From Priapulus caudatus (lineage: Eukaryota > Priapulida > Priapulimorpha > Priapulimorphida > Priapulidae), in assembly GCF_000485595.1 (NCBI RefSeq), contig NW_014577673.1:111256-148419 (forward strand): a DNA stretch of 37,164 nt, read 5' to 3'. This document shows, in pieces, positions 789 to 35,886 of this stretch; position 1 is the stretch's first letter, and each line of letters opens with the position of its first letter. Position numbers and translations under genes: made by a program. A model generated the notes under the pieces. The model worked only from the letters and a program-made list of their open reading frames with translations, had not been told where the DNA came from and made no database searches.

Positions 789-1275
789 ATGGGTGCTAAG
801 TCTAGCGTCAGTGCGTCCACTAGCCAAAGCAGAGAGATAAGTTTTTCAGAGTCTCACTCAAACAGCGGTGCCAATGGCAATGGTTTAGTGGTGGCGGGTG
901 CCAGTGGTGGAGGCGTCGACAGTTACTCCAGTTCCAGCTCGAGTCCATTAGACGTGAGTGCAAACAGTTTAGCAGTGGGTTCTTCAGTGCATCAACGATC
1001 GAACAGTGCTTCTGAACCAGGCGAGAGGACGCCTCTACGAACATTCTGTGTGCGACCTCGTGCCCACACACATTACCCAAGAGTGCATCATAGAAGCCAT
1101 CATGCTGCAAGCCTTGGGTTGTTCTCGGCTGTTCAGGGTGCTGCTTACCGTGCGGGTCTAGTTGACTCCGATAGTAGTCCCGATGAGGACGAGGCGTCTG
1201 GACTCAACAGGTTTTTTCAAACGCACGGTCACGGCATGTCACAGTCCTTGCCCGTGCACCTGTTTTCACTAACTG
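789..1275 (+). CDS. ZNRF1/2: ZNRF exon 1 (myristoylated Ser-rich N-terminus)
   Basis: This exon codes for residues 1-162 plus the first base of codon 163. The start is the first ATG and gives Gly at position 2, as N-myristoylation needs. It ends at G|GTGAGA inside ...SLPVHLFSLT, the conserved segment just before the zinc finger. Reading past the donor gives a non-conserved frame ending at a TAA at 1314-1316, so splicing here is favoured. It holds an acidic patch (DSDSSPDEDE) near residues 126-135. Confidence 0.94.
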
Positions 1276-4200
1276 GTGAGACATGTCGATGTGAATATAG
1301 ACCACCCTTCATATAATTTGTAAATGATTATCCCACATTGGCTATGGTTTCCCCCTTCCTTTACATTTGGGGGTCACTGCTGTTTCTAGTATATGTGATG
1401 TGCCTATATGCTGTGAAATTAGTATTCATAGTATTACTATTACTATTAGTATAATAACAAGAGCTGCAGAGCGTCTGGGCTCATCTGAGGTCTGTTGCTA
1501 CGGTTATAAACGTAACATTTAAGTCGTGCGTAGTGACACCTTTGTTAGGTGCAGATATGCAGATACGCAGTTGCGTACACATCATTTCAGCAACCTGCTT
1601 ACCTCCCAAATCCCATTGGTTGATACAAATCGCGTGCCTGAAACTTCTGTTTTATGGTGCATTGTGACCCTAACCCTAACCCTATTAAAAAAAACGAATT
1701 AATTGTTGTAAAAATTATTTGTTGTTATTAAATGGTTGTAAATAAATCATGTTAATATTTGCATTAATTGGAAAAAAATAGTTAAATGGATAAAGATAGA
1801 AAAATACAGAAAACAGGTAAATAATAAAAAATCTGATGGGATTCGATCCAAGGACCTTAGAGTTAGAGCCATAATCCTCTGCTGTACCTGTTGAGCTATC
1901 AGGGCATGTTGGTTTTCTAGATTATGGATGTGCCATAAATGAGAACACTGACATCATTGAGGCAGTTCATGAATCCATGTTTAACCCTCCTCTTGAGGGT
2001 CAAAAGGTTATCAGACACTTACTCTTCGCACGTCAGTGGAAAGCACATTTCATGGTCCTTTCAATAAAGTGATAAAAATGGTAGGTCAGCGCTGAAACAA
2101 AAGAGTTGTTCACTCTGTCCATTAGGCCATGTCCTCAGAAAATGTCTGATATCTGACCTTTCCCCCACTGCCCTTTGACCTGTGATCTCCAATTTCGCAC
2201 TGGTGATGGGTTTCCTGCCCATCACACTATACACCGAATATTAAGAGCATAGGTCGAGCCGTTACGATTTGTGCCGCAATTCCGTATTTCCTCATACCTT
2301 AAGTTAAGGGGGAAATATTCCTCCTCCGTTTACACATCTTGACCTTTGACCCTTGACCCCCAAATTTGTCATCCCGAGTCCTTTTCACGATCTCCCCCGA
2401 CGTCCCGAATATCGTGACCGTACGTCGAGCGGTTAAGATTTGTGCCCAACTGTTGACGGACGCACGGACGGACGGAAGGACGGACAATCATGCGATTCTA
2501 CAAGGCTAGCTGCACTTGACTACGTCAGATGAGCTAAAAATCCACTGAAAGCAATAGTGAAATATGTATTACTATTGGCGTAAATTAGCTCTAGAACTTC
2601 AACTATAGCCCTTCGCTCCTGTGGTGGAGCGAAGGGCTATCTAGAGCTAGGCGTAAATACGCTGCTCAGTCGTGTAATGTAGATAGTACTGTTTTCAGAT
2701 TTAAAGTGTCCAGTTTGCAACAAGATGATGCCGTCGGACGACATAGAGTGTCATCTTGTCATGTGCCTCACAAAACCTAGGATCAACTACAATGGTACAT
2801 TCATTAATCACAACTAAATTCTCATGCCTTTTCCAATGGTATTATTTATAAATACAGTACACAATCTATTATCCAAAATTCTGAAAACCGAAAAGCGCCG
2901 AAAACCGAAAGTGTTTTCGTGGAGTTCGCCGGACACCAAAGCTCGCGTTTGGCTGCACAAGGTTCATTGCAGAAATATTAATGTGTTTGCCATTACTCGT
3001 ACATATTGTACTGTACCGGTACAGCACTTGGCATCTTGAAAACTTGGGTTTTAGTACTGGCTGGTGGCAGGATATGTGGTATGTATATCTGTACTGTACT
3101 AGCATTCCGAAATCTGGAAAATGCCGAATTCCGAAACGTGTCTGGTCCCAAGGGTTTCGGATAATAGATTGTGTACTGTAGAAATAGTCCCTTTCCAATT
3201 TCCATATGGTTTGATTGACAGGCAGAACATCTGGCTAATCATTGTTGTGGTGGTATGCTGTAGAATGAATGCTTGGCAAGAAAGTGCTGCTGCCAAGCTA
3301 ACATATTGGCATGTATGCAGAAAAAACACACATAAAATAATCTACCTGGACCTGTCTAACAACAGTGTCCAATTAAGGCACATGGGTTATCTTGCTCATA
3401 TGGTTAACTCGGTTAGCATTTATATTTACCGAAAACTTTTAATTGTTATTGTGTCAAGCTTCTATGCAATAATCTATAACACATGATGTAATTGTATATA
3501 TGCAAGCTAATGTTATCAGAACATCATCAATAACAAAGTTATCACACTTTCTTATTGAAGATGAAGAAAGAATATATGCATGCAGTACATAGTAAGTCCA
3601 TATTCCTTCTCATTTTATTGTCTCGATGGCATTTGTATTTTATAATTAATTTCAAACTTAAATGCATTTCAGTTGATTCACTACAGTTAGATAGTGGAGA
3701 ATGTGTCATATGCTTGGATGATCTAACCTCTGGACAGACGATAGCTAGGTTACCCTGCCTCTGTATATATCATAAACAGTAAGTTCTCTGTGTGACCAAG
3801 TTATAATATTATTGATCATTTCAGACTTATTTTTCTTGTCTTCAAATCAGAAAGGCATACCTGTGCTTAAATTTAGTGAACTAAAATGAGCTTTAAACGT
3901 GCACGTACATACATGCACGCGTGCACACACACCCACGCATACATACGCACGCATACATACGCACGCCTGCATACATACGCACGCCTGCATACATACGCAC
4001 GCCTGCATACACATTACATATGCATACATATGCATACATACGCACGCACGCCTGCATACATACACACGCCTGCATACACATTACATACGCATACATACGC
4101 ACGCACATGTATTGATACATCAGGCAGATCGAGAATTAAATGCTTTTGTTTAGATTTAAAGTAGAGCAGATCCAGCAATGACCCTTGGGGGGGGGGTCAG

Positions 4201-5109
4201 TCACGCGCATGGATACAACATATCGTGGTTATATGTGGAACGTGCTGCAGGCAGTGTTGCAATGTTATGTGAGCCATTGGTTTGTGTGTGACACATTTAT
4301 TGCCATCCATTCAGTATTGTACCACACAGACTTCGTGGCCTGCCTGTACTGTTCTACTAGGCTACTAGCAACCTATATATACATGCAAGAGTAGATAATA
4401 ACACAAGAGTGCGGCACGAGTTCGGCATTTTTAACCGATTTTTCTCATCAAAATTTGCCACCAATAAAGAAGGAAGTGTATACGTTCCTCAGCTTATTAT
4501 GACCACTAATGTGTTATTATCTACTCTTGATACATGCCAGTGCATTGGCTGTCTAGCGTTAGCTCAGTCTGGATGGCATTGATTTGTTGGTAGAACAAAC
4601 AGTGCTAATTTGTATCTGTATGCTCCAATGTCCACGTACTTGCCATGTAGAGCAAGGATAGTGCCTCTGACCTTGTGGCTAGGTTGTGCTCCATGTATGA
4701 TGTATATCATTGTATAACTTATCACTCTACATTGTACTGCTATTTTTACATTGTTAGTTGTAGCCAATTATCTTCTTTTATGAATTTTCTTACCCACGCA
4801 ACCAGAGACGTTTTCGTTCCTCTTCCAGTCCTTCCACCTTTACAAAATCACCCCCCCCCTCCCCGATGTAAAGCATCTGTTGAGCATGCCTTAAACACAC
4901 CACTCCTTCATGGTGTGCGGAACCCATCCCTTCCTCTGTAACCCATCTGCCCATTCCGTTCCGTAGAGCGTTCACTCCTCCTGTGTGTCGGATTCTGGCG
5001 ATGATCGCGGCTTCGCCTGTTAACCGTCCGATGCTTTGTTTTCCTTTACAGCTGCATCGACGAGTGGTTTCAAGTGAATCGGTCGTGTCCCGAGCATCCG
5101 TCCGACTAG
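789..5109 (+). CDS. ZNRF1/2: ZNRF1/ZNRF2-type E3 ubiquitin ligase, four exons
   Basis: The gene model is join(789-1275, 2699-2794, 3673-3778, 5052-5109): 747 nt, 248 residues plus stop, close to vertebrate ZNRF1/2 in length. All introns are GT-AG, with phases 1, 1 and 2. The N-terminus MGAKSS has Gly2 and Ser5/6 of an N-myristoylation signal, the known membrane anchor of this family on endosomes, lysosomes and plasma membrane. Residues 8-80 are Ser/Gly-rich and probably disordered. Residues 166-185 form the C2HC finger CPVC...HLVMC (C166, C169, H181, C185). Residues 205-245 form the family's unusual RING: C205, C208, C223, C225, H228, C231, C242 and H245, with Cys replacing the usual first His and His replacing the last Cys. 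The tail is CPEHPSD, as in the family. The role known from relatives is transfer of ubiquitin with E2 partners such as Ubc13. No key residue is missing. I infer a single ancestral ZNRF1/2 gene; the assignment to one paralog is open. Confidence 0.96.
1668..1684. repeat. Short telomere-type CCCTAA run
   Basis: CCCTAACCCTAACCCTA is just under three units of the animal telomere repeat TTAGGG (reverse strand). It is far too short to be a telomere and is an interstitial relic or chance. It is weakly informative: it fits a TTAGGG rather than an insect-type TTAGG species. Confidence 0.6.
1831..1905 (-). pseudogene. Degenerate tRNA-like sequence (tRNA pseudogene or SINE head)
   Basis: Read on the - strand it is 75 nt long. 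It has an acceptor start GCCCTGA, an A-box-like TAGCTCAACAGGTACAGC and a B-box-like GGATCGAATCC. The D stem keeps three of four pairs. The anticodon stem and T stem have several mismatches, and only TCAG of the 3' acceptor pairs. The anticodon position would read ATG, but the fold is too broken for a working tRNA. A tRNA-derived SINE head is equally possible; no second copy is seen here. Confidence 0.55.
2140..2545. repeat. TGACC-rich tandem repeat with GACGG tail
   Basis: Two diverged units about 165-170 bases apart share GACCTTTGACC..., a GAATAT segment, and TCGAGCSGTTAMGATTTGTGCC (about 2252 and 2421). The second runs into GTTGACGGACG...GACGGACGG (about 2450-2485) and then a GAGCTAAAAA end (2531-2540). 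The same tail design closes the repeat at 20.39-20.46 kb, so the two loci belong to one non-autonomous repeat superfamily. Confidence 0.6.
2577..2658. mobile_element. 64-bp hairpin MITE with 9-bp target duplications
   Basis: The element (2586-2649) has 9-bp ends TAGCTCTAG/CTAGAGCTA. Inside is a perfect 15-bp stem ATAGCCCTTCGCTCC (2605-2619) pairing with 2626-2640 across a 6-base loop. It is flanked by the direct repeat GGCGTAAAT (2577-2585 and 2650-2658), a 9-bp target duplication of the kind Mutator-like transposases make. The superfamily is an inference from the duplication length only. Confidence 0.7.
2699..2794 (+). CDS. ZNRF1/2: ZNRF exon 2 (C2HC zinc finger)
   Basis: The exon follows TTTTCAG and ends at G|GTACAT. 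Together with the last base of exon 1 it codes for residues 163-194, DLKCPVCNKMM...RINYN. It contains the whole C2HC zinc finger (C166, C169, H181, C185) and the conserved MCLTKPR segment. There is no in-frame Met start, so it is visible only as a spliced exon. Confidence 0.95.
2853..3180. mobile_element. Pogo/Tigger-like MITE in ZNRF intron 2
   Basis: The element is 2855-3178 (324 bases). Its ends CAGTACACAATCTATTATCC and the reverse complement at 3159-3178 match over at least 20 bases. It is flanked by TA on both sides (2853-2854, 3179-3180). A TA target duplication with termini starting CAGT is typical of pogo/Tigger non-autonomous elements. It has no transposase. Internal runs of CCGAAAANC are subterminal repeats. 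Confidence 0.85.
3673..3778 (+). CDS. ZNRF1/2: ZNRF exon 3 (first part of RING)
   Basis: The acceptor is ATTTCAG|TT and the donor is CA|GTAAGT, a perfect consensus. The exon codes for residues 195-229 (VDSLQLDSGECVICLDDL...CLCIYHK) plus two bases of codon 230. It carries RING ligands C205, C208, C223, C225 and H228. Reading on past the donor gives Q and then a stop, so the exon must be spliced to reach the rest of the RING. Confidence 0.96.
3899..4104. repeat. CATACATACGCACGCCTG minisatellite
   Basis: Tandem copies of CATACATACGCACGCCTG and shorter CATA/CGCA variants, about 200 bases. Several overlapping open frames (His/Thr/Ala-rich) arise from it and are artefacts. Confidence 0.9.
4379..4536. 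mobile_element. 144-bp terminal-inverted-repeat element in ZNRF intron 3
   Basis: Ends CAAGAGTAGATAATAACAC (4386-4404) and the exact reverse complement at 4511-4529 form perfect 19-bp inverted repeats. They are flanked by ATACATG on both sides (4379-4385 and 4530-4536), a 7-bp direct repeat. It has no coding capacity. The superfamily is unclear from a 7-bp duplication (hAT normally gives 8). Confidence 0.8.
5052..5109 (+). CDS. ZNRF1/2: ZNRF exon 4 (end of RING, stop)
   Basis: The acceptor TTTCCTTTACAG has a good pyrimidine tract. With CA from exon 3 the exon completes His230, then CIDEWFQVNRSCPEHPSD and TAG (5107-5109). It supplies RING ligands C231, C242 and H245. Confidence 0.95.
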
Positions 5110-12158: not shown

Positions 12159-12251
12159 CAGCACAACGTTGACAGACGGCGAAATATTACAGCACAACGT
12201 TGACAGACGGCGAAATATTACAGCACAACGTTCACAGACGGCGAAATATTA
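12159..12251. repeat. 31-bp tandem repeat, three copies
   Basis: Three adjacent units beginning CAGCACAACGTTGACAGACG and ending GCGAAATATTA. Copies 1 and 2 are identical and copy 3 has one change (GTTCAC for GTTGAC). Confidence 0.95.
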
Positions 12252-12447: not shown

Positions 12448-12811
12448 CATTCGCCAAATTATAGTAAGATACGCTAAAAACTCCGTAGAATTAAGTAAAT
12501 ACATGTGTCAAAATTTCCTCTACACGTTGTTCCTGAGCGGTACCTAAGCTAGTTCAGTTGACACGGCTTTGACAAGCCAGACTAATTACAACAAACATGA
12601 AGCCATTATGGGTGGCATAACAAAGATCGCGAATCATTTCTATATTTATATAGCAAAATAATCCCACTTGGAACATGGGAAATCCGTTTAGAATATTATG
12701 GGAAACACAAATAAATTAAAACTGTGTGTAATAATCAGCCAATTGAGAACTTGTCTAACTGGTGGTGAGGCTTGATAGTAATGTCCCATGCACTGGAGAT
12801 GAATTGCTATG

Positions 12812-12884
12812 GGATGCACTCATCAAAGCTGGCTGTGATATGAAACCAAAAAACAACACATCAAAGCCACTTTGATGGAAGCAA
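12812..12884 (-). ncRNA. mir-2: microRNA precursor, miR-2 family, copy 4 in transcript order
   Basis: On the - strand the 3' arm (12819-12840) reads TATCACAGCCAGCTTTGATG then AG, the canonical miR-2 mature sequence with seed AUCACAG. The 5' arm (about 12857-12877) reads CATCAAAGTGGCTTTGATGT and pairs with it across an A/T-rich loop. The mature product on the 3' arm is as known for miR-2. It is the distal member of the cluster. miR-2 acts in RISC, mainly as a repressor of neural and cell-death genes in studied protostomes. Confidence 0.93.
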
Positions 12885-13094
12885 CCCTCTGTGGTCCAAC
12901 AACACCTTCTGTGATTACCTTCGACTGGTTATTGCTAGACACTGTACTGTCAATATTTCTCGCTCTCAAGACAAAATGGTTAAACATTTCTAAATAACCT
13001 CCTTATACATTTTACTATTACTTCGTTGAAACTAAAGCTTGGATGCCAAACTTGCTGCGACGATGTAGCAGTGAGGTTCTGATGATGACAGAGA

Positions 13095-13167
13095 AAGCCA
13101 ACTCATCAAAGCTGGCTGTGATATGCATCTTAACACACCATGTCACAACCACTTTGACTGGCTGGCC
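13095..13167 (-). ncRNA. mir-2: microRNA precursor, miR-2 family, copy 3 in transcript order
   Basis: The 3' arm (13102-13123) is identical to the first 22 nt of the copy at 12819-12840. The 5' arm (13139-13161, - strand CCAGTCAAAGTGGTTGTGAC...) differs but keeps pairing, including a G:U exchange. Changed 5' arm and loop with an unchanged mature arm is the pattern of a selected microRNA. Confidence 0.93.
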
Positions 13168-13270
13168 TGCAAGCGATCGCATTCATCCCACATCCTGGTG
13201 ATGTCTCGTGGCGGTGCTCTGAAACCCATGGATGTCGGTTATAATGGTGGGTTCAAGGCGAACATTCGGG

Positions 13271-13340
13271 CCACAGTCTCATCAAAGCTGGCTGTGATAT
13301 GATAGCTCAAACACATCACAGACACTTTAACGAATCTGCT
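13271..13340 (-). ncRNA. mir-2: microRNA precursor, miR-2 family, copy 2 in transcript order
   Basis: The 3' arm (13278-13299) has the same 22-nt miR-2 sequence as the two downstream copies. The 5' arm (13312-13332, - strand CGTTAAAGTGTCTGTGATGT) pairs with mismatches near the middle. The loop is short, about 12 nt. Confidence 0.92.
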
Positions 13341-13454
13341 ACCACGCAATAGTGCCACCGTGTGTACTCAGCTGTTAGAGAAAGTCCTGCCAGTCTCTCG
13401 GTGTCATCCTACACATTGTACAATTACAATAACTCATAGTAATCGGTGACCACG

Positions 13455-13494
13455 GCACTCTTGCCTCCTCACCATCTGCCGCAGGCAAGAGTGC
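13455..13494 (-). ncRNA. Candidate extra hairpin within the miRNA cluster
   Basis: GCACTCTTGCCT (13455-13466) and AGGCAAGAGTGC (13483-13494) form a perfect 12-bp stem with a 16-base loop, between the first and second miR-2 copies. The lower stem is weak: CCAC/GTGG can pair only across an asymmetric internal loop. On either strand the 3' arm begins AGGCAAGA, which resembles the miR-31 seed, although known miR-31 matures from the 5' arm. Strand is assigned by the cluster. It may be a lineage-specific microRNA or an unrelated structure. Confidence 0.35.
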
Positions 13495-13545
13495 TCTGCC
13501 AGTGGCGAGTCCACAGCACCACCACTGTATGTCGCACAGACGGGG

Positions 13546-13618
13546 CCTCAGTTTCATCAAGGCTGGCTGTGATAGACCCTGTCATAAACTATGACATGCC
13601 AGCTTTGACGCACTGAAA
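13546..13618 (-). ncRNA. mir-2: microRNA precursor, miR-2 family, copy 1 in transcript order
   Basis: The 3' arm (13553-13574) reads TATCACAGCCAGCCTTGATG then AA. It keeps the full seed and differs from the other copies at nt 14 (C for U) and at the 3' end. The 5' arm (13591-13610, - strand CGTCAAAGCTGGCATGTCAT) is its partner. This is the copy next to miR-71, about 240 bases downstream of it, and the most diverged of the four. Confidence 0.92.
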
Positions 13619-13817
13619 CGTTCTGTTCCGTCATCAAATGACAGACGCTCGAGATTGGCGGGGGAAAATTCAGTTAGCACGCATTACGGCTGTGGAGAAT
13701 GCCACAGGAACTTTGCAGCTGTGAAGTTTGCCTCTTGTAGGCGAGGAACTTCATAGGGATTCAACAAAATATAGAGTATGGCGCATTGCTGAGGGTCTTC
13801 TTTGTCGAGGCCAAATT

Positions 13818-13892
13818 CACATTTTTGACAGACAAAGTAGTGAGATGGTTTGTACAAAGTACATCTCACTACCCATGTCTTTCACAACATGA
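13818..13892 (-). ncRNA. mir-71: microRNA precursor miR-71, head of the miR-71/miR-2 cluster
   Basis: On the - strand the 5' arm (13862-13884) reads TGAAAGACATGGGTAGTGAG then ATG, the full canonical miR-71 sequence. The 3' arm (13826-13848) reads CCATCTCACTACTTTGTCTG then TCA and pairs along the whole length, with a loop around TACTTTGTACAAA. miR-71 is an ancient bilaterian microRNA lost in vertebrates, linked to stress response and lifespan in nematodes. It comes first in transcription order, ahead of four miR-2 genes within about 1.1 kb, as in other protostomes. Confidence 0.97.
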
Positions 13893-14199
13893 ATACGATT
13901 ACTCCGTGACCAACCTTTACCGCTATAGCACCAGTAACATAACTGCAGATATCCTACCTGAAATCCGATTGAGTTTTGGTGTTGATGTTCGTGGTTTGCT
14001 AATTAAATTCGATTCATACAAATGGTATTTCATACAATCAGAAACTAATTACTTCATCACATGCTATCCCAGTAGCAGAGTAACTCAAGCTTATCACCTA
14101 GTTATTATATGGGCGTTTGCTGTCATTGATCTTATATTAAAAATCCATGCTAACTGCATCAACAGTTTTAGCAGCAAATAATTGAGAAAAATATTTTTT

Positions 14200-15012
14200 T
14201 AAATTGTCACGCCATCACTACAAGCAATGCACGAAATCCTAATACGAAAATCGAAAATCATAGGCTAGTGACGTCCAGCAAAAAATGGAGTATTAGAGCG
14301 GAACCGCAGCGACTGACCTATCTACATTCTTCACGAATAACTTTGAACCACTGGCCCTTCAAGTATTCTGTAAAATGTACATGCCCGAATGACATTCCAC
14401 TTGCCCATATATTCTGCAGGAATATTTTTGTAATATAGCGTAAAGAAGTGTACACCAGACAACTTCTAGATGCCATTCATTTCCGTTGTTAACATATCGT
14501 TATTTTTAATTAGCTAATGGCCAGCTGTATTTTAATTTATGCATTTTTAGAGCAGGAGCCCGTCGGGCACGTGAGCTTGCAATGTTTACATGCCCGCCGA
14601 GATTTCTACACGTCTCGGGTGTCGGACGCCCGGCTAAATTCGAAGACTATGTCCGTCTGAGCAAGATAGCCATGCCCGTTTGATAGCTCCCAGGATGGTC
14701 AGACCAGACCAGGTTGCAGCTGCTATTCACGCACGCCAAATTGTAAACTTTGCGGCACTTCGTTGCTAACCGGCATCTCAAGTATGCCGCTGTCGCTATG
14801 CTAATTGGCTGGAGGTACCTGTCGATCACTATACACAGATAAGACGATTCCAAATTATTTGATTGCCAGATATGAGACTCTCCAAGCTGTTGTCATGCAT
14901 GCGAAGCACCACTACCAACCGTTGCCCAATCCTGATACATCAAAAGCACAGACTGATAGTGACAAAGCAGGCTGCGCAACTGGCCAAAACCTTGACACCT
15001 TTGAAGAATAAC
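14200..15012. other. Region upstream of the miRNA cluster (- strand sense)
   Basis: No gene is recognised. A GC-richer patch at about 14,555-14,640 (AGCCCGTCGGGCACGTGAGC...) contains a palindromic CACGTG E-box and lies about 700 bases upstream of miR-71, a position where a pri-miRNA promoter could sit. This is position-based inference only. Confidence 0.25.
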
Positions 15013-15352
15013 AATCATTAGCTCAACCCTGATGCATCAGACGTTTAGTGACCACTGCTTAAAACCGTGATGCATCAAACCTTTAGTGACCACTGCTCAA
15101 CCCTGGTGCATCAAACCTTTAGTGACCACTGCTCAACCCTGGTGCATCAAACCTTTAGTGACCACATTTAGTGACCACTGCTCAACCCTGGTGCATCAAA
15201 CCTTTAGTGACCACTGCTCAACCCTGGTGCATCAAACCTTTAGTGACCACTGCTCAACCCTTGTGCATCAAACCATTAGTGACCACTGCCTATTTCTAAC
15301 ACATCAGAAGCATCTTGACCACTGCCTAACCCATGTTACAGTTAGTGAAGTT
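15013..15352 (+). repeat. 36-bp tandem array, about eight copies
   Basis: The unit is TCAACCCTGGTGCATCAAAC followed by CTTTAGTGACCACTGC. Central copies are nearly identical, and one carries a small internal duplication of TTTAGTGACCAC (about 15,155-15,175). Outer copies decay on both sides. Because 36 is a multiple of three, a frame through it stays open (repeating HCSTLVHQTFSD), but no start, domain or flanking exon supports translation. Confidence 0.9.
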
Positions 15353-32473: not shown

Positions 32474-32870
32474 GTCCATTCCCTCGTCTCTCCTCTCTCT
32501 CGCTTGTTAAACTCTGACTACGTCCAACAATTTCTCTAATGGCTAAAATTTGTAAAATTTTTGTTGCCATTTTTTTACATTAAAAGTAAGTACTAACGGG
32601 ACTAAACGTATCGTCAAATTCTTACCTGATAAGATTGTTTCTCACTAGCTAAACATCCAAAAAACTGGACGATTTTGATTTATGTTCCTGACATTAATTG
32701 CTTTCTATGGGCTTGTATGAGTCACGAGTGTATGTCACACAATCGAACAATATAGTAAAATAGGAAGTATAATGCAGCAATTTAACCATAAAAAGTGAAC
32801 AGAATTACTTATATTTTGTGAAAAAGTGGAAATGTATTTTTTATTTTTACTATTTACGGCGACAGCGCCC

Positions 32871-32964: not shown

Positions 32965-34805
32965 CACGGTCTGAGATTACCCTTCTGATTACCCCAGTCT
33001 GAAATTACCCCCCAGCACCTCGTGCGCATGCGTGACGCATGCGCAGTAGCGCTGGATAATGAGACGGCCGCGCCACAGTCTGAAGTAGGCAGGGTAAATT
33101 CATGACTGGGGTAATTTCGTGTCAGACCGGTCTGAAATTGTTCGCGGCAAAGTATATATCTTAACCCGGGTGCCCATAGGCGGGTAAATTCAGACTGGGG
33201 TAATCTCCGACCGGTCTGGAATTGTTCCGCAGCAAATTTATATCTTAACCCGGGTGCCCATAAGGCGGGTAAATTCAGCACTGGGGTAATCTCAGACACC
33301 GGTCTGGAATTGTTTGCGCAAATTATATCTTAACCTGCTAGGTGCCCATGGGAGGGTAAATTCAGACTGGGGTAATCTCAGACCGGACTGGAAATGTTCG
33401 CGCAAATTATATCTTAACCTGGGGTGCCCATATATAGGAGTATAATGTCCAGACAGGGGTAATCTCAGAGACCGGGCTGGAATTGTTCCGCAATTATAGT
33501 GCTTAAAACCATGGGTGCCATATATAGGAGGGGTAAATTCAGACTCAGGGTAATCTCAGAACCGGCTGGAATTGTTTGCCGCAAATTAATATCTGGGTGC
33601 CGCAATAGAGAGGTAAATTCTCAGACTGGGGGTAATCTCAGACCGGGCTTGGAATTGTTCGCGGCATTATATCTTAAGAACCATGCAGGGTGCCCATAGG
33701 AGGGTAATATTCAGACTGGGGGTTAATCTCAGACCGGGCTGGAATTGTTCGCGCAAATTATATCCTTAACCTGCATGGGTGCCCATGGGAGGATTAGTTA
33801 TTAGACTGGGGTAAATCTCAGACCGGTTGGAATTGTTCGCCAGCAATTTATAGTCTTCTAAAACGCAGCTCCATATAGGAGGGTATTTTCAAACTGGGCT
33901 GGAATTGTTCGCGCAAAATTATATCTGGGTGCCCATAGGCAGGCGTAAGATTCAGACTGGGGTAATCTTCAGACGCGGGCTGGAATTGTTCGCGGAAATT
34001 ATAATCTTAAAACCATGCAGGGTGCCATTATGGAGGGTAAAAATTTCAACTGGCGGTAATCTCAGACGGGCTGGAATTGTTCCCGCGCAAATTTAATCTT
34101 TAACTGCTGGCTGCCATGAGGGTTAATTCAGACCGGGGTTATCTCAAACCCGGATCTGGAATTGTTCGCGCAGAATTATAATCGTTAAAACGCAGCTCCA
34201 TAAGGAGGCGTATTTTTCAAACTGGCCTGGAATTGTTCGCCGCAAATTATCATCTCCTAACCGTGGGTGCCCATAGGAGGTAAATTCAGACTGGGGTAAT
34301 CCTCAGGACCGGGCTGGGAATTGTGTTTGCGCAAATTAATATCTGGGTGCCCAATGGGCAGGGTATCGAATGTCAGACTTGGGGTAATCTCAGACGGACA
34401 TGGAAATGTTCGCGGCGACATTACTATCTTAACTGGGTGCCCAAGGAGGGTAAATGTCAGTACTGGGGGTAACTCAGACCGGGCGTGGGTGGATTTGTTC
34501 GCGCAAATTATATTTTAAAACCAATGCGGGTGCCCAGAGAGGGGTAAATTCCAGTCCTGGGGGTACATCTCCAGACCGGGCTGGAATTGTTTCGCGTCGA
34601 GCAAATTATTCCTTAACCATGGGTGCGCCCAAGAGGGTAGATTTCAGACTGGGGTAATCTCAGACCGGTCTGGAATTGTTCGCTGCCACGAATTATATGC
34701 TTAACCTGGTCCCGATCAGAAGGGTATAATTCTGACAGGGGTACATCGTCAGACCGGGCGGAATGTGGTTTCACTGCAAATTATAATCTAACGCTGAGTG
34801 CACAT
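32965..34805. repeat. About 80-90-bp minisatellite array, about 20 copies
   Basis: The unit runs GGGTGCCCATAGGAGGGTAA, ATTCAGACTGGGGTAATCTC, AGACCGGGCTGGAATTGTTC, GCGCAAATTATATCTTAACC. The array proper spans about 33,080-34,805. The segment at 32,965-33,010 is the same GGTCTGAGATTACCC/CAGTCTGAAATTACC sequence in inverted orientation. Copies carry many single-base insertions and deletions, mostly in homopolymers, so some variation may be long-read error. Short open frames within are meaningless. Confidence 0.92.
33024..33044. promoter_or_regulatory. Double NRF1-like palindrome
   Basis: GCGCATGCGT, G, ACGCATGCGC is a perfect 21-base palindrome whose halves each match the NRF1 motif GCGCAYGCG. 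It lies between the inverted repeat fragment at 32,965-33,010 and the minisatellite array. Confidence 0.4.
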
Positions 34806-35886
34806 AGGAGGGTTAGAGGAAGGAGGAGAAGAGGAGAAGGAGGAGAATGAGGATGGGGGAATGGGTGTTGGAGGTAAGGAAGAGAAGGGGAAGGCAGGGA
34901 AGTGAGGCAAGGAGGAGCGTAAAGAGCAGGAGAGGAGGGGAGCAGTTGATGGAGATCGATGAAGAAAGGTCGTGGAGGGAGGGGTAGGGGGCAGGAGGAG
35001 GAGGAGGCAGGAGGAGGAGGGAGAAGGTGTCTGGAGGAGGATGGGAAGGTGTGAGGAAGAGGGGAGAAGGTGTTGGAGTAGGAAGGAGGAGGAGGAGAGG
35101 AGGGGGAGGAAGGAGGGGGGAGGAGGAGGGCGGAGAAGGTGATGGAGATCGACTGAAGAACGGCTCATGGAGGACGGAGTTGGGGCAGGAGAGGAGGAGG
35201 AGGGGAGAAGGTGTTGGAGGACGATGGGAGGTGGAGGAGAGGCGGAGGAGGAGGGAGAAGGTGCTTGGAGTAGGAGGAGGTAGGAGGAGGAGGGGAGAAG
35301 GAGGGAGGAGGAGGAGAGCGAGGCAGGGGGAGAGGAGGGGGAGAGGAGGAGCGGAAGAAAGGTGATGAAGAATCGCAATTGAAGAGGTCTGCGAGAGGAG
35401 TAGGGGCAGGAGGAGGAGGAAGGAGAGGGGAGAACGGATGACTGGGAGTAGGGGGACAGAAAGGAGGAGGGGAGGCGAGGAGAAGGAGGAGGAGGGGAGA
35501 GGGGGAAGAGAGAGGACGGACAGGTGATGGAGGGTCGAAATGAAGAAGGGTTAAGAAGAAGGAAGAGTAGGGGCAGGAGGAGGAGAAGGAGGAGGCGGAG
35601 GAAGGAGAGAGGTGATAGAGTAGGAGGAGGAGAGAAAGGGGTAGAGGATGAGAGGGGAAGAGGGCGGGGGGGAGGGAAGGCGGAGGAGGTGAGATTTGGA
35701 GGAGGAAGGGGGCAGGGGTAGCGCAGGACAGAGGAAGAGAAGGAGCAGGAGGAGGAGGAGGCAACAACAGGAGAAGGTGATGGAGATCAGAATGAAGGAC
35801 ATGGAGGAGGAGTAGGGCAGGAGGAGGAGATGAGGAGCGAGGAGGAGGAGGATGAGGAGGGGAGGAGGAGAGAGGCAGGAGGAGCA
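34806..35886. repeat. GGA-rich purine tract with a higher-order repeat
   Basis: About 1.08 kb of GGAGGAGGA/GGAGAAGGTG sequence with almost all purines on the + strand. A motif GATGGAGATCGATGAAGAA and variants recurs near 34,951, 35,143, 35,361, 35,523 and 35,777, spacing about 160-250 bases. Such tracts can form triplex or G-rich structures. The long Ser/Pro-rich - strand and Gly/Arg/Glu-rich + strand frames are artefacts. Confidence 0.9.

What the first reader, a model, noticed from the sequence alone, without database searches (positions are those of the whole stretch)
12812..13892. Complete miR-71/miR-2 cluster on the - strand
One miR-71 and four miR-2 hairpins lie within 1.1 kb in canonical order. 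Mature arms match the known families over essentially full length (TGAAAGACATGGGTAGTGAG...; TATCACAGCCAGC...), and each has a complementary opposite arm. Short open frames overlap it, so a protein-only annotation would miss it entirely. It fixes the organism as a protostome.
Basis: partly seen in the sequence, partly recalled or inferred. Interest (0 to 1): 0.85.

Follow-up and report, generated by a model that had tools for sequence, protein, structure and literature searches.

The report
Priapulid worm miR-71/miR-2 microRNA cluster

Summary
[quoted passage not shown] Rfam's curated cut-off is passed by 4 of the 5. The first mir-2 copy misses it (22.3 against 45.5 bits), but its mature arm differs by one base in 21 and it folds. 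All five have a CNNC motif 16-18 nt past the predicted 3p end. The cluster looks intergenic in the frames tested. It is real but ordinary.

Less ordinary, and outside the window: contig C390 has eight divergent mir-2-like hairpins in one PBDC1 intron and a ninth in the next, all sense. None of the nine passes Rfam's cut-off. Mature arms are more alike than star arms, loops and flanks. That makes 13 candidate loci with the miR-2 seed. I found no description in the held papers searched. No small-RNA reads were available, so processing is inferred.

The parts
13819..13890 (-). mir-71 precursor; predicted 5p 13862-13884 (TGAAAGACATGGGTAGTGAGATG), predicted 3p 13824-13845; CNNC at +17
   Evidence: Rfam RF00832 61.5 bits, cut-off 50; z -4.44, CNNC; only mir-71 match above the cut-off in the genome search, which scored 60 of 29,077 candidates
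13548..13615 (-). mir-2 copy 1, the most divergent; predicted 3p 13552-13574 (TATCACAGCCAGCCTTGATGAAA), predicted 5p 13588-13611; CNNC at +18
   Evidence: Rfam RF00047 22.3 bits, below cut-off 45.5; z -3.75, 0 of 300 shuffles
13273..13337 (-). mir-2 copy 2; predicted 3p 13277-13299, predicted 5p 13312-13333; CNNC at +17
   Evidence: Rfam RF00047 58.3 bits; z -4.26
13097..13164 (-). mir-2 copy 3; predicted 3p 13101-13123, 5p arm within 13134-13160; CNNC at +17
   Evidence: Rfam RF00047 57.5 bits; z -3.77
12814..12882 (-). mir-2 copy 4; predicted 3p 12818-12840, predicted 5p 12857-12878; CNNC at +17
   Evidence: Rfam RF00047 59.2 bits; z -2.35, 5 of 300 shuffles as stable
789..5109 (+). ZNRF2-like E3 ligase gene (coding starts at 789, stop codon 5107-5109); nearest identified gene, convergent with the cluster, about 7.7 kb away; context, not part of the cluster
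   Evidence: 98% identity over 99% of a 167-aa exon piece to Priapulus caudatus ZNRF2-like P0121; last exon CIDEWFQVNRSCPEHPSD at 5053

Best explanation
The window holds the Priapulus caudatus orthologue of the ancestral protostome miR-71/miR-2 cluster. A minus-strand, probably independent (intergenic) primary transcript would carry five hairpins, be cut by Drosha and then Dicer, and give one miR-71-5p and four miR-2-3p molecules loaded into Argonaute. The four miR-2 copies share the seed AUCACAG, so they would repress a common target set, differing mainly in dose and 3' pairing. Shown: sequence, order, strand, predicted hairpins, family matches, CNNC motifs, species. Inferred: transcription as one unit, cleavage sites, expression, targets.
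For: Rfam hits above curated cut-offs for 4 of 5. Mature arm identical over 22 nt in three mir-2 copies; 1 mismatch in the first 21 nt in the fourth. Folding z from -2.35 to -4.44. CNNC at +16 to +18 in 5 of 5, local background 17.2%. Identity across the four mir-2 copies falls from mature 0.90 to star 0.63, loop 0.42 and flanks 0.22-0.28, the pattern expected of miRNAs. Order as described for protostomes (PMC4244043, PMC3763532, passages read). No Pfam match in 144 flanking open frames or in 13 overlapping ones. Species.
Against: mir-2 copy 1 is far below Rfam's cut-off. Copy 4 folds only modestly better than its shuffles. No transcript, promoter or small-RNA data. An untranslated host transcript cannot be excluded. 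Four of the five also score on the plus strand, all below cut-off (39.3, 35.8, 35.2 and 29.2 bits), as palindromic hairpins do, so strand rests on the higher minus-strand scores and the known families.
Confidence: 0.96

Rival explanations
1. The cluster is partly decayed: mir-71 and three mir-2 copies are functional, while mir-2 copy 1 is a degenerating or re-specialised copy.
For: Copy 1 scores 22.3 bits against a cut-off of 45.5 and has the lowest identity to the other three (0.49-0.54).
Against: Its mature arm differs from the others by one base in 21, its fold is more stable than all 300 shuffles (z -3.75) and it keeps a CNNC at +18.
Confidence: 0.15
2. The cluster is expressed from a long host transcript or an unannotated gene on the minus strand rather than as its own unit.
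For: This genome's other mir-2-like set is intronic. The Pfam scans took 157 of the 214 frames kept, and genes without a Pfam domain would be missed.
Against: No Pfam match in those 157 frames. The minus-strand gene that I recognised by eye, SLC38-like in L008, lies left of the window, with the whole plus-strand ZNRF2 gene between its recognised exons and the cluster.
Confidence: 0.2
3. Chance or repeat-derived hairpins that merely resemble mir-71 and mir-2.
For: The window is rich in simple repeats that fold strongly.
Against: Rfam E-values of 7.4e-11 to 6.7e-9 for a 37-kb search; mature-arm conservation; the genome-wide mir-71 search found one locus above the cut-off.
Confidence: 0.01

Closest known systems
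Centipede (Strigamia maritima) mir-71/mir-2 cluster (PMC4244043, passages read)
   Same: mir-71 followed by several mir-2 copies in close proximity; described there as conserved across protostomes.
   Different: Five mir-2 copies there, four here; different phylum.
Chelicerate duplicated mir-71/mir-2 clusters (PMC4987109, passages read)
   Same: Spiders and a scorpion have one mir-71 plus three to six mir-2 in a cluster, generally in two clusters per genome.
   Different: In the clusters described there the second cluster generally has its own mir-71. In Priapulus the C390 set has none found (one above-cut-off mir-71 locus in the genome search), has diverged mature sequences and lies in PBDC1 introns.
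Flatworm miR-71/miR-2 clusters (PMC4405270, passages read)
   Same: mir-71 with its mature on the 5' arm, mir-2 mature on the 3' arm, clustered.
   Different: The C. sinensis miR-71a/2 cluster spans 441 nt and trematodes have two mir-71-bearing clusters; here about 1.1 kb with one mir-71.
Drosophila mir-2/mir-13 clusters (PMC3763532, passages read)
   Same: mir-2 copies by tandem duplication from an ancestral cluster founded next to mir-71.
   Different: Drosophila lost mir-71; Priapulus keeps it.

Membership tests
miR-71 family (Rfam RF00832) | Match to the family covariance model above the curated cut-off | tested here: met
   61.5 bits against 50
miR-2 family (Rfam RF00047), window copies 2-4 | Match to the family covariance model above the curated cut-off | tested here: met
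   Three of the four window copies: 59.2, 58.3, 57.5 against 45.5
miR-2 family (Rfam RF00047), copy 1 at 13548-13615 | Match to the family covariance model above the curated cut-off | tested here: not met
   22.3 bits; called mir-2-like by its mature arm, position and fold, not by Rfam
miR-2 family | 3' arm mature starting UAUCACAG with seed AUCACAG | tested here: met
   4 of 4 window copies by sequence; the 5' end of the mature is inferred, not read
miR-71/miR-2 cluster | mir-71 upstream of mir-2 copies on one strand within about 1 kb | tested here: met
   Coordinates
Genuine miRNA gene | Hairpin more stable than shuffled sequence | tested here: met
   z -2.35 to -4.44; copy 4 weakest, 5 of 300 shuffles as stable
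Genuine miRNA gene | CNNC motif about 16-18 nt past the 3p end (motif and its position recalled from the literature) | tested here: met
   5 of 5; background 13.8% window, 17.2% local
Genuine miRNA gene | Small-RNA reads with homogeneous 5' ends and 2-nt 3' overhangs | not testable with these tools
   No read data available
miR-2 family, second set on C390 (PBDC1 introns) | Match to RF00047 above the curated cut-off | tested here: not met
   0 of 9 pass: best 40.4 and 39.4 bits against 45.5; seven of the nine were listed at E <= 1, hairpins 6 and 7 not at all. Therefore called mir-2-like only

The most novel reading that the evidence does not exclude
Priapulus caudatus has evolved a second miR-2 subfamily in two sense introns of PBDC1: eight hairpins in one intron, with the seed unchanged but a new mature body (about TATCACAGRCCCTTTGGTGATGCA), grown by tandem duplication, and a ninth, perhaps separately derived, in the next intron. 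With no mir-71 beside them, their expression would be tied to PBDC1 transcription, uncoupling most miR-2-seed loci (9 of the 13 found) from the ancestral mir-71 transcript.
Probability: 0.65. Interest if true: 0.45.

Novelty: new member of a known kind. Interest (0 to 1): 0.32.

Why it matters
The window's cluster adds a conserved regulatory locus from Priapulida, an ecdysozoan phylum, that protein-only annotation would miss. The PBDC1-intron set matters more: if expressed, it shows a large seed-conserved miRNA expansion in a new host gene without its ancestral partner, and it makes testable whether miR-2 dose became coupled to another gene's promoter in priapulids.

Tried and rejected
Folding energy alone as proof: rejected, because simple repeats in the window fold more stably. 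Extra miRNA hairpins between the known ones: the segment 13430-13530 does fold well (-44 kcal/mol, z -3.51, 0 of 200 shuffles), but as separate stems, and its best single hairpin, 13445-13512, has a 12-bp perfect stem with poor extension, too short for a canonical precursor; left open as a candidate. 13715-13790 (z -0.73, 42 of 200) and 12900-13000 (z 0.47, 128 of 200) fold about as well as shuffles. Four two-mismatch pattern hits elsewhere in the genome (L020-L023, where the reversed control pattern gave 5 hits): none matches model R1 and none folds as a mir-2 hairpin. The weak mir-71 match on C381 (L012, 26.4 bits) is a near-perfect inverted repeat, not a mir-71. A scan of viral contigs for a 21-base miR-2 sequence found 0 exact matches. 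Rfam plant-miRNA and Thr-leader matches in L007 are below their cut-offs and look like inverted or simple repeats. The genome-wide Rfam searches scored 60 of 38,817 (mir-2) and 60 of 29,077 (mir-71) candidates, so further weak loci could be missed; sub-cut-off matches also rang in 1 of 14 (mir-2) and 4 of 14 (mir-71, at E <= 1) control genomes, none over the cut-off. Identifying the animal by 18S rRNA: the search never ran; species was settled by proteins instead. Model R1 was trained on the 13 hairpins, so its scores for them are not independent evidence; likewise the structure counted on alignment A2 was derived from the same sequences.

Full report
WHAT WAS CHECKED. [quoted passage not shown] The sequence contains TATCACAGCCAGC four times and TGAAAGACATGGGTAG once, all minus strand and nowhere else in the window. 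Rfam, at curated cut-offs over the whole window, returns exactly four matches: mir-71 at 13819-13890 and mir-2 at 12814-12882, 13097-13164 and 13273-13337. The fourth mir-2, 13548-13615, appears only at a relaxed threshold, 22.3 bits against 45.5.

HAIRPINS. In 113-nt segments the five fold with z -4.44 (mir-71), -3.75, -4.26, -3.77 and -2.35 (mir-2 copies 1-4 in transcript order); 0, 0, 0, 0 and 5 of 300 dinucleotide shuffles were as stable. Across the whole window energy is not discriminating, because simple repeats fold better (4,944 segments), but within 12,500-14,200 the five are the most stable single-loop folds with at least 20 pairs. A CNNC motif (its role in primary miRNA processing is recalled) lies 16-18 nt past the predicted 3p end in 5 of 5, against a background of 13.8% in the window and 17.2% locally; the mir-2 copies are paralogues, so these are not fully independent. 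Among the four mir-2 copies, mean pairwise identity is 0.90 in the mature arm, 0.63 in the star arm, 0.42 in the loop and 0.22-0.28 in the flanks.

CONTEXT. The 13 overlapping open frames scanned have no Pfam match at E <= 0.01, nor do 144 flanking frames at E <= 0.001. These 157 are part of 214 frames of at least 48 aa that passed a complexity filter out of 308; the other 57 were not in these two scans. One search scanned eight frames, several of them the same, and found a RING-like match in the ZNRF2 exon just under the Pfam cut-offs and one weak match (DUF3408, E 0.053). The identified gene nearby is a ZNRF2-like E3 ligase on the plus strand, coding from 789 to 5109, convergent with the cluster and about 7.7 kb from it. 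An SLC38-like transporter lies further left on the minus strand (L008; named by eye from its translation, no family search). I therefore read the cluster as intergenic with its own transcript, which is inference.

ORGANISM. The first exon of the ZNRF2-like gene matches one protein at E <= 0.001, from Priapulus caudatus, at 98% identity over 99% of the query, and the contig length given for that protein, 186,839, equals that of the window's contig C613. A spliced PBDC1 from contig C390 of the same assembly is 100% identical over 138 aa to the P. caudatus protein; the contig length listed for that record (263,402) differs from that of C390 (248,952), which I did not explain. Priapulus is an ecdysozoan, Scalidophora.

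THE SECOND SET. A genome search with the mir-2 family gave, besides three window copies, two sub-threshold matches on contig C390 (60 of 38,817 candidates scored). Reading that contig revealed eight hairpins within 33,673-34,894 and a ninth at 32,508-32,574 (contig coordinates), all minus strand. Mature arms of seven of the eight fit TATCACAGNCNNTTTGGTGATG, with arm 3 carrying one extra base; the ninth is CATCACAGTCGCTTTGGTGAGTG. A whole-genome pattern search with up to two mismatches found 7 exact matches, all here, and 4 with two mismatches elsewhere, none a hairpin of this kind; the reversed control pattern gave 5. None of the nine passes Rfam's mir-2 cut-off; the best score is 40.4 against 45.5, and hairpins 6 and 7 are not listed at E <= 1. 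The exons of PBDC1 bracket them: the intron from L006 9106 to 7378 holds hairpins 1-8 and the intron from 7265 to 6298 holds hairpin 9, with GT/AG borders, and the public protein agrees with this splicing. Folding z runs from -1.53 (hairpin 6, 19 of 300 shuffles) to -4.76; CNNC at 16-18 is present in 6 of 9 (background 10.6%), two have it at 14 and one lacks it. Hairpins 6 and 7 are 95% identical, a recent tandem duplication. In an unrooted quick tree the four window copies group together (support 0.90) and the ninth hairpin falls next to them (0.86), so it may have a separate origin from the eight. Across hairpins 1-8 identity is 0.92 mature, 0.76 star, 0.52 loop, 0.42 flanks. On an alignment of all 13 mir-2-like hairpins, 93.6% of paired cells form standard pairs (shuffles 87.3%, 0 of 500 as high) and 19 cells have changes on both sides, against a mean of 5.9 in shuffles and 1-4 in slid controls; the number of further pair types is not clearly above shuffles (17 against 15.0, 66 of 500 as high). 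This is consistent with descent from mir-2 and selection on the hairpin, with the caveat that the structure was derived from the same alignment.

MECHANISM. For the window cluster: transcription of a minus-strand primary RNA, Drosha and Dicer cleavage, Argonaute loading of miR-71-5p and miR-2-3p. For C390: release from PBDC1 introns. All 13 predicted miR-2-like products share AUCACAG at positions 2-8, so target overlap is expected. These steps follow from established knowledge of the families; none is shown here.

COMPARISON. A cluster of mir-71 and several mir-2 copies is described in centipede (PMC4244043), chelicerates (PMC4987109) and flatworms (PMC4405270), and its origin by birth of mir-2 in the mir-71 transcript is argued in PMC3763532 (passages read of each). 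The window's cluster is a further member. Chelicerates show that duplicate clusters exist, but those described generally keep mir-71. On the PBDC1-intron set: no held paper contained any of six sequence terms; PBDC1 had 0 occurrences in the ten papers shown of 6,932; no held paper has both Priapulus and MirGeneDB; 8 papers hold 'Priapulus caudatus' and 'miRNA', 7 were listed, and I read passages of one of them, the tardigrade paper PMC5531438, which says nothing on it there. One search is uninformative, since none of the 25 papers shown of 1,791 mentions Priapulus. Subscription papers, MirGeneDB and miRBase could not be consulted, so absence from print is not established.

VERDICT. The finding is correct and ordinary in kind. 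Its value is as an entry point to the larger, divergent, intronic mir-2-like set, whose expression is untested.

Noticed in passing
L006 (contig C390) 6509-8895, minus strand: Nine mir-2-like hairpins in two sense introns of PBDC1, sharing the miR-2 seed but with a different mature body; no mir-71 found there.
   Followed up: yes
L006 6509-6575, minus strand: The ninth hairpin begins CATCACAGTC, like insect miR-11 as recalled; the mir-11 model scores 29.2 bits against a cut-off of 45.
   Followed up: partly
window 13430-13530, minus strand: A stable fold (z -3.51) with a 12-bp perfect stem at its core between mir-2 copies 1 and 2; the hairpin is too short to call a miRNA precursor, but it is a candidate for a new hairpin in an existing transcript.
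   Followed up: partly
window 33091-35884: Long degenerate tandem arrays (about 86-332-bp units), then nearly 1 kb of GGA-rich repeats with strong strand skew.
   Followed up: no
window 12159-12251 and 15021-15336: Short tandem arrays with 31-bp and 36-bp units on either side of the cluster.
   Followed up: no
C1568:75493-76781, minus strand: A second, weaker COX1-like stretch with several stops, on another contig than the likely mitochondrial one (C2952); perhaps a nuclear copy of mitochondrial DNA.
   Followed up: no
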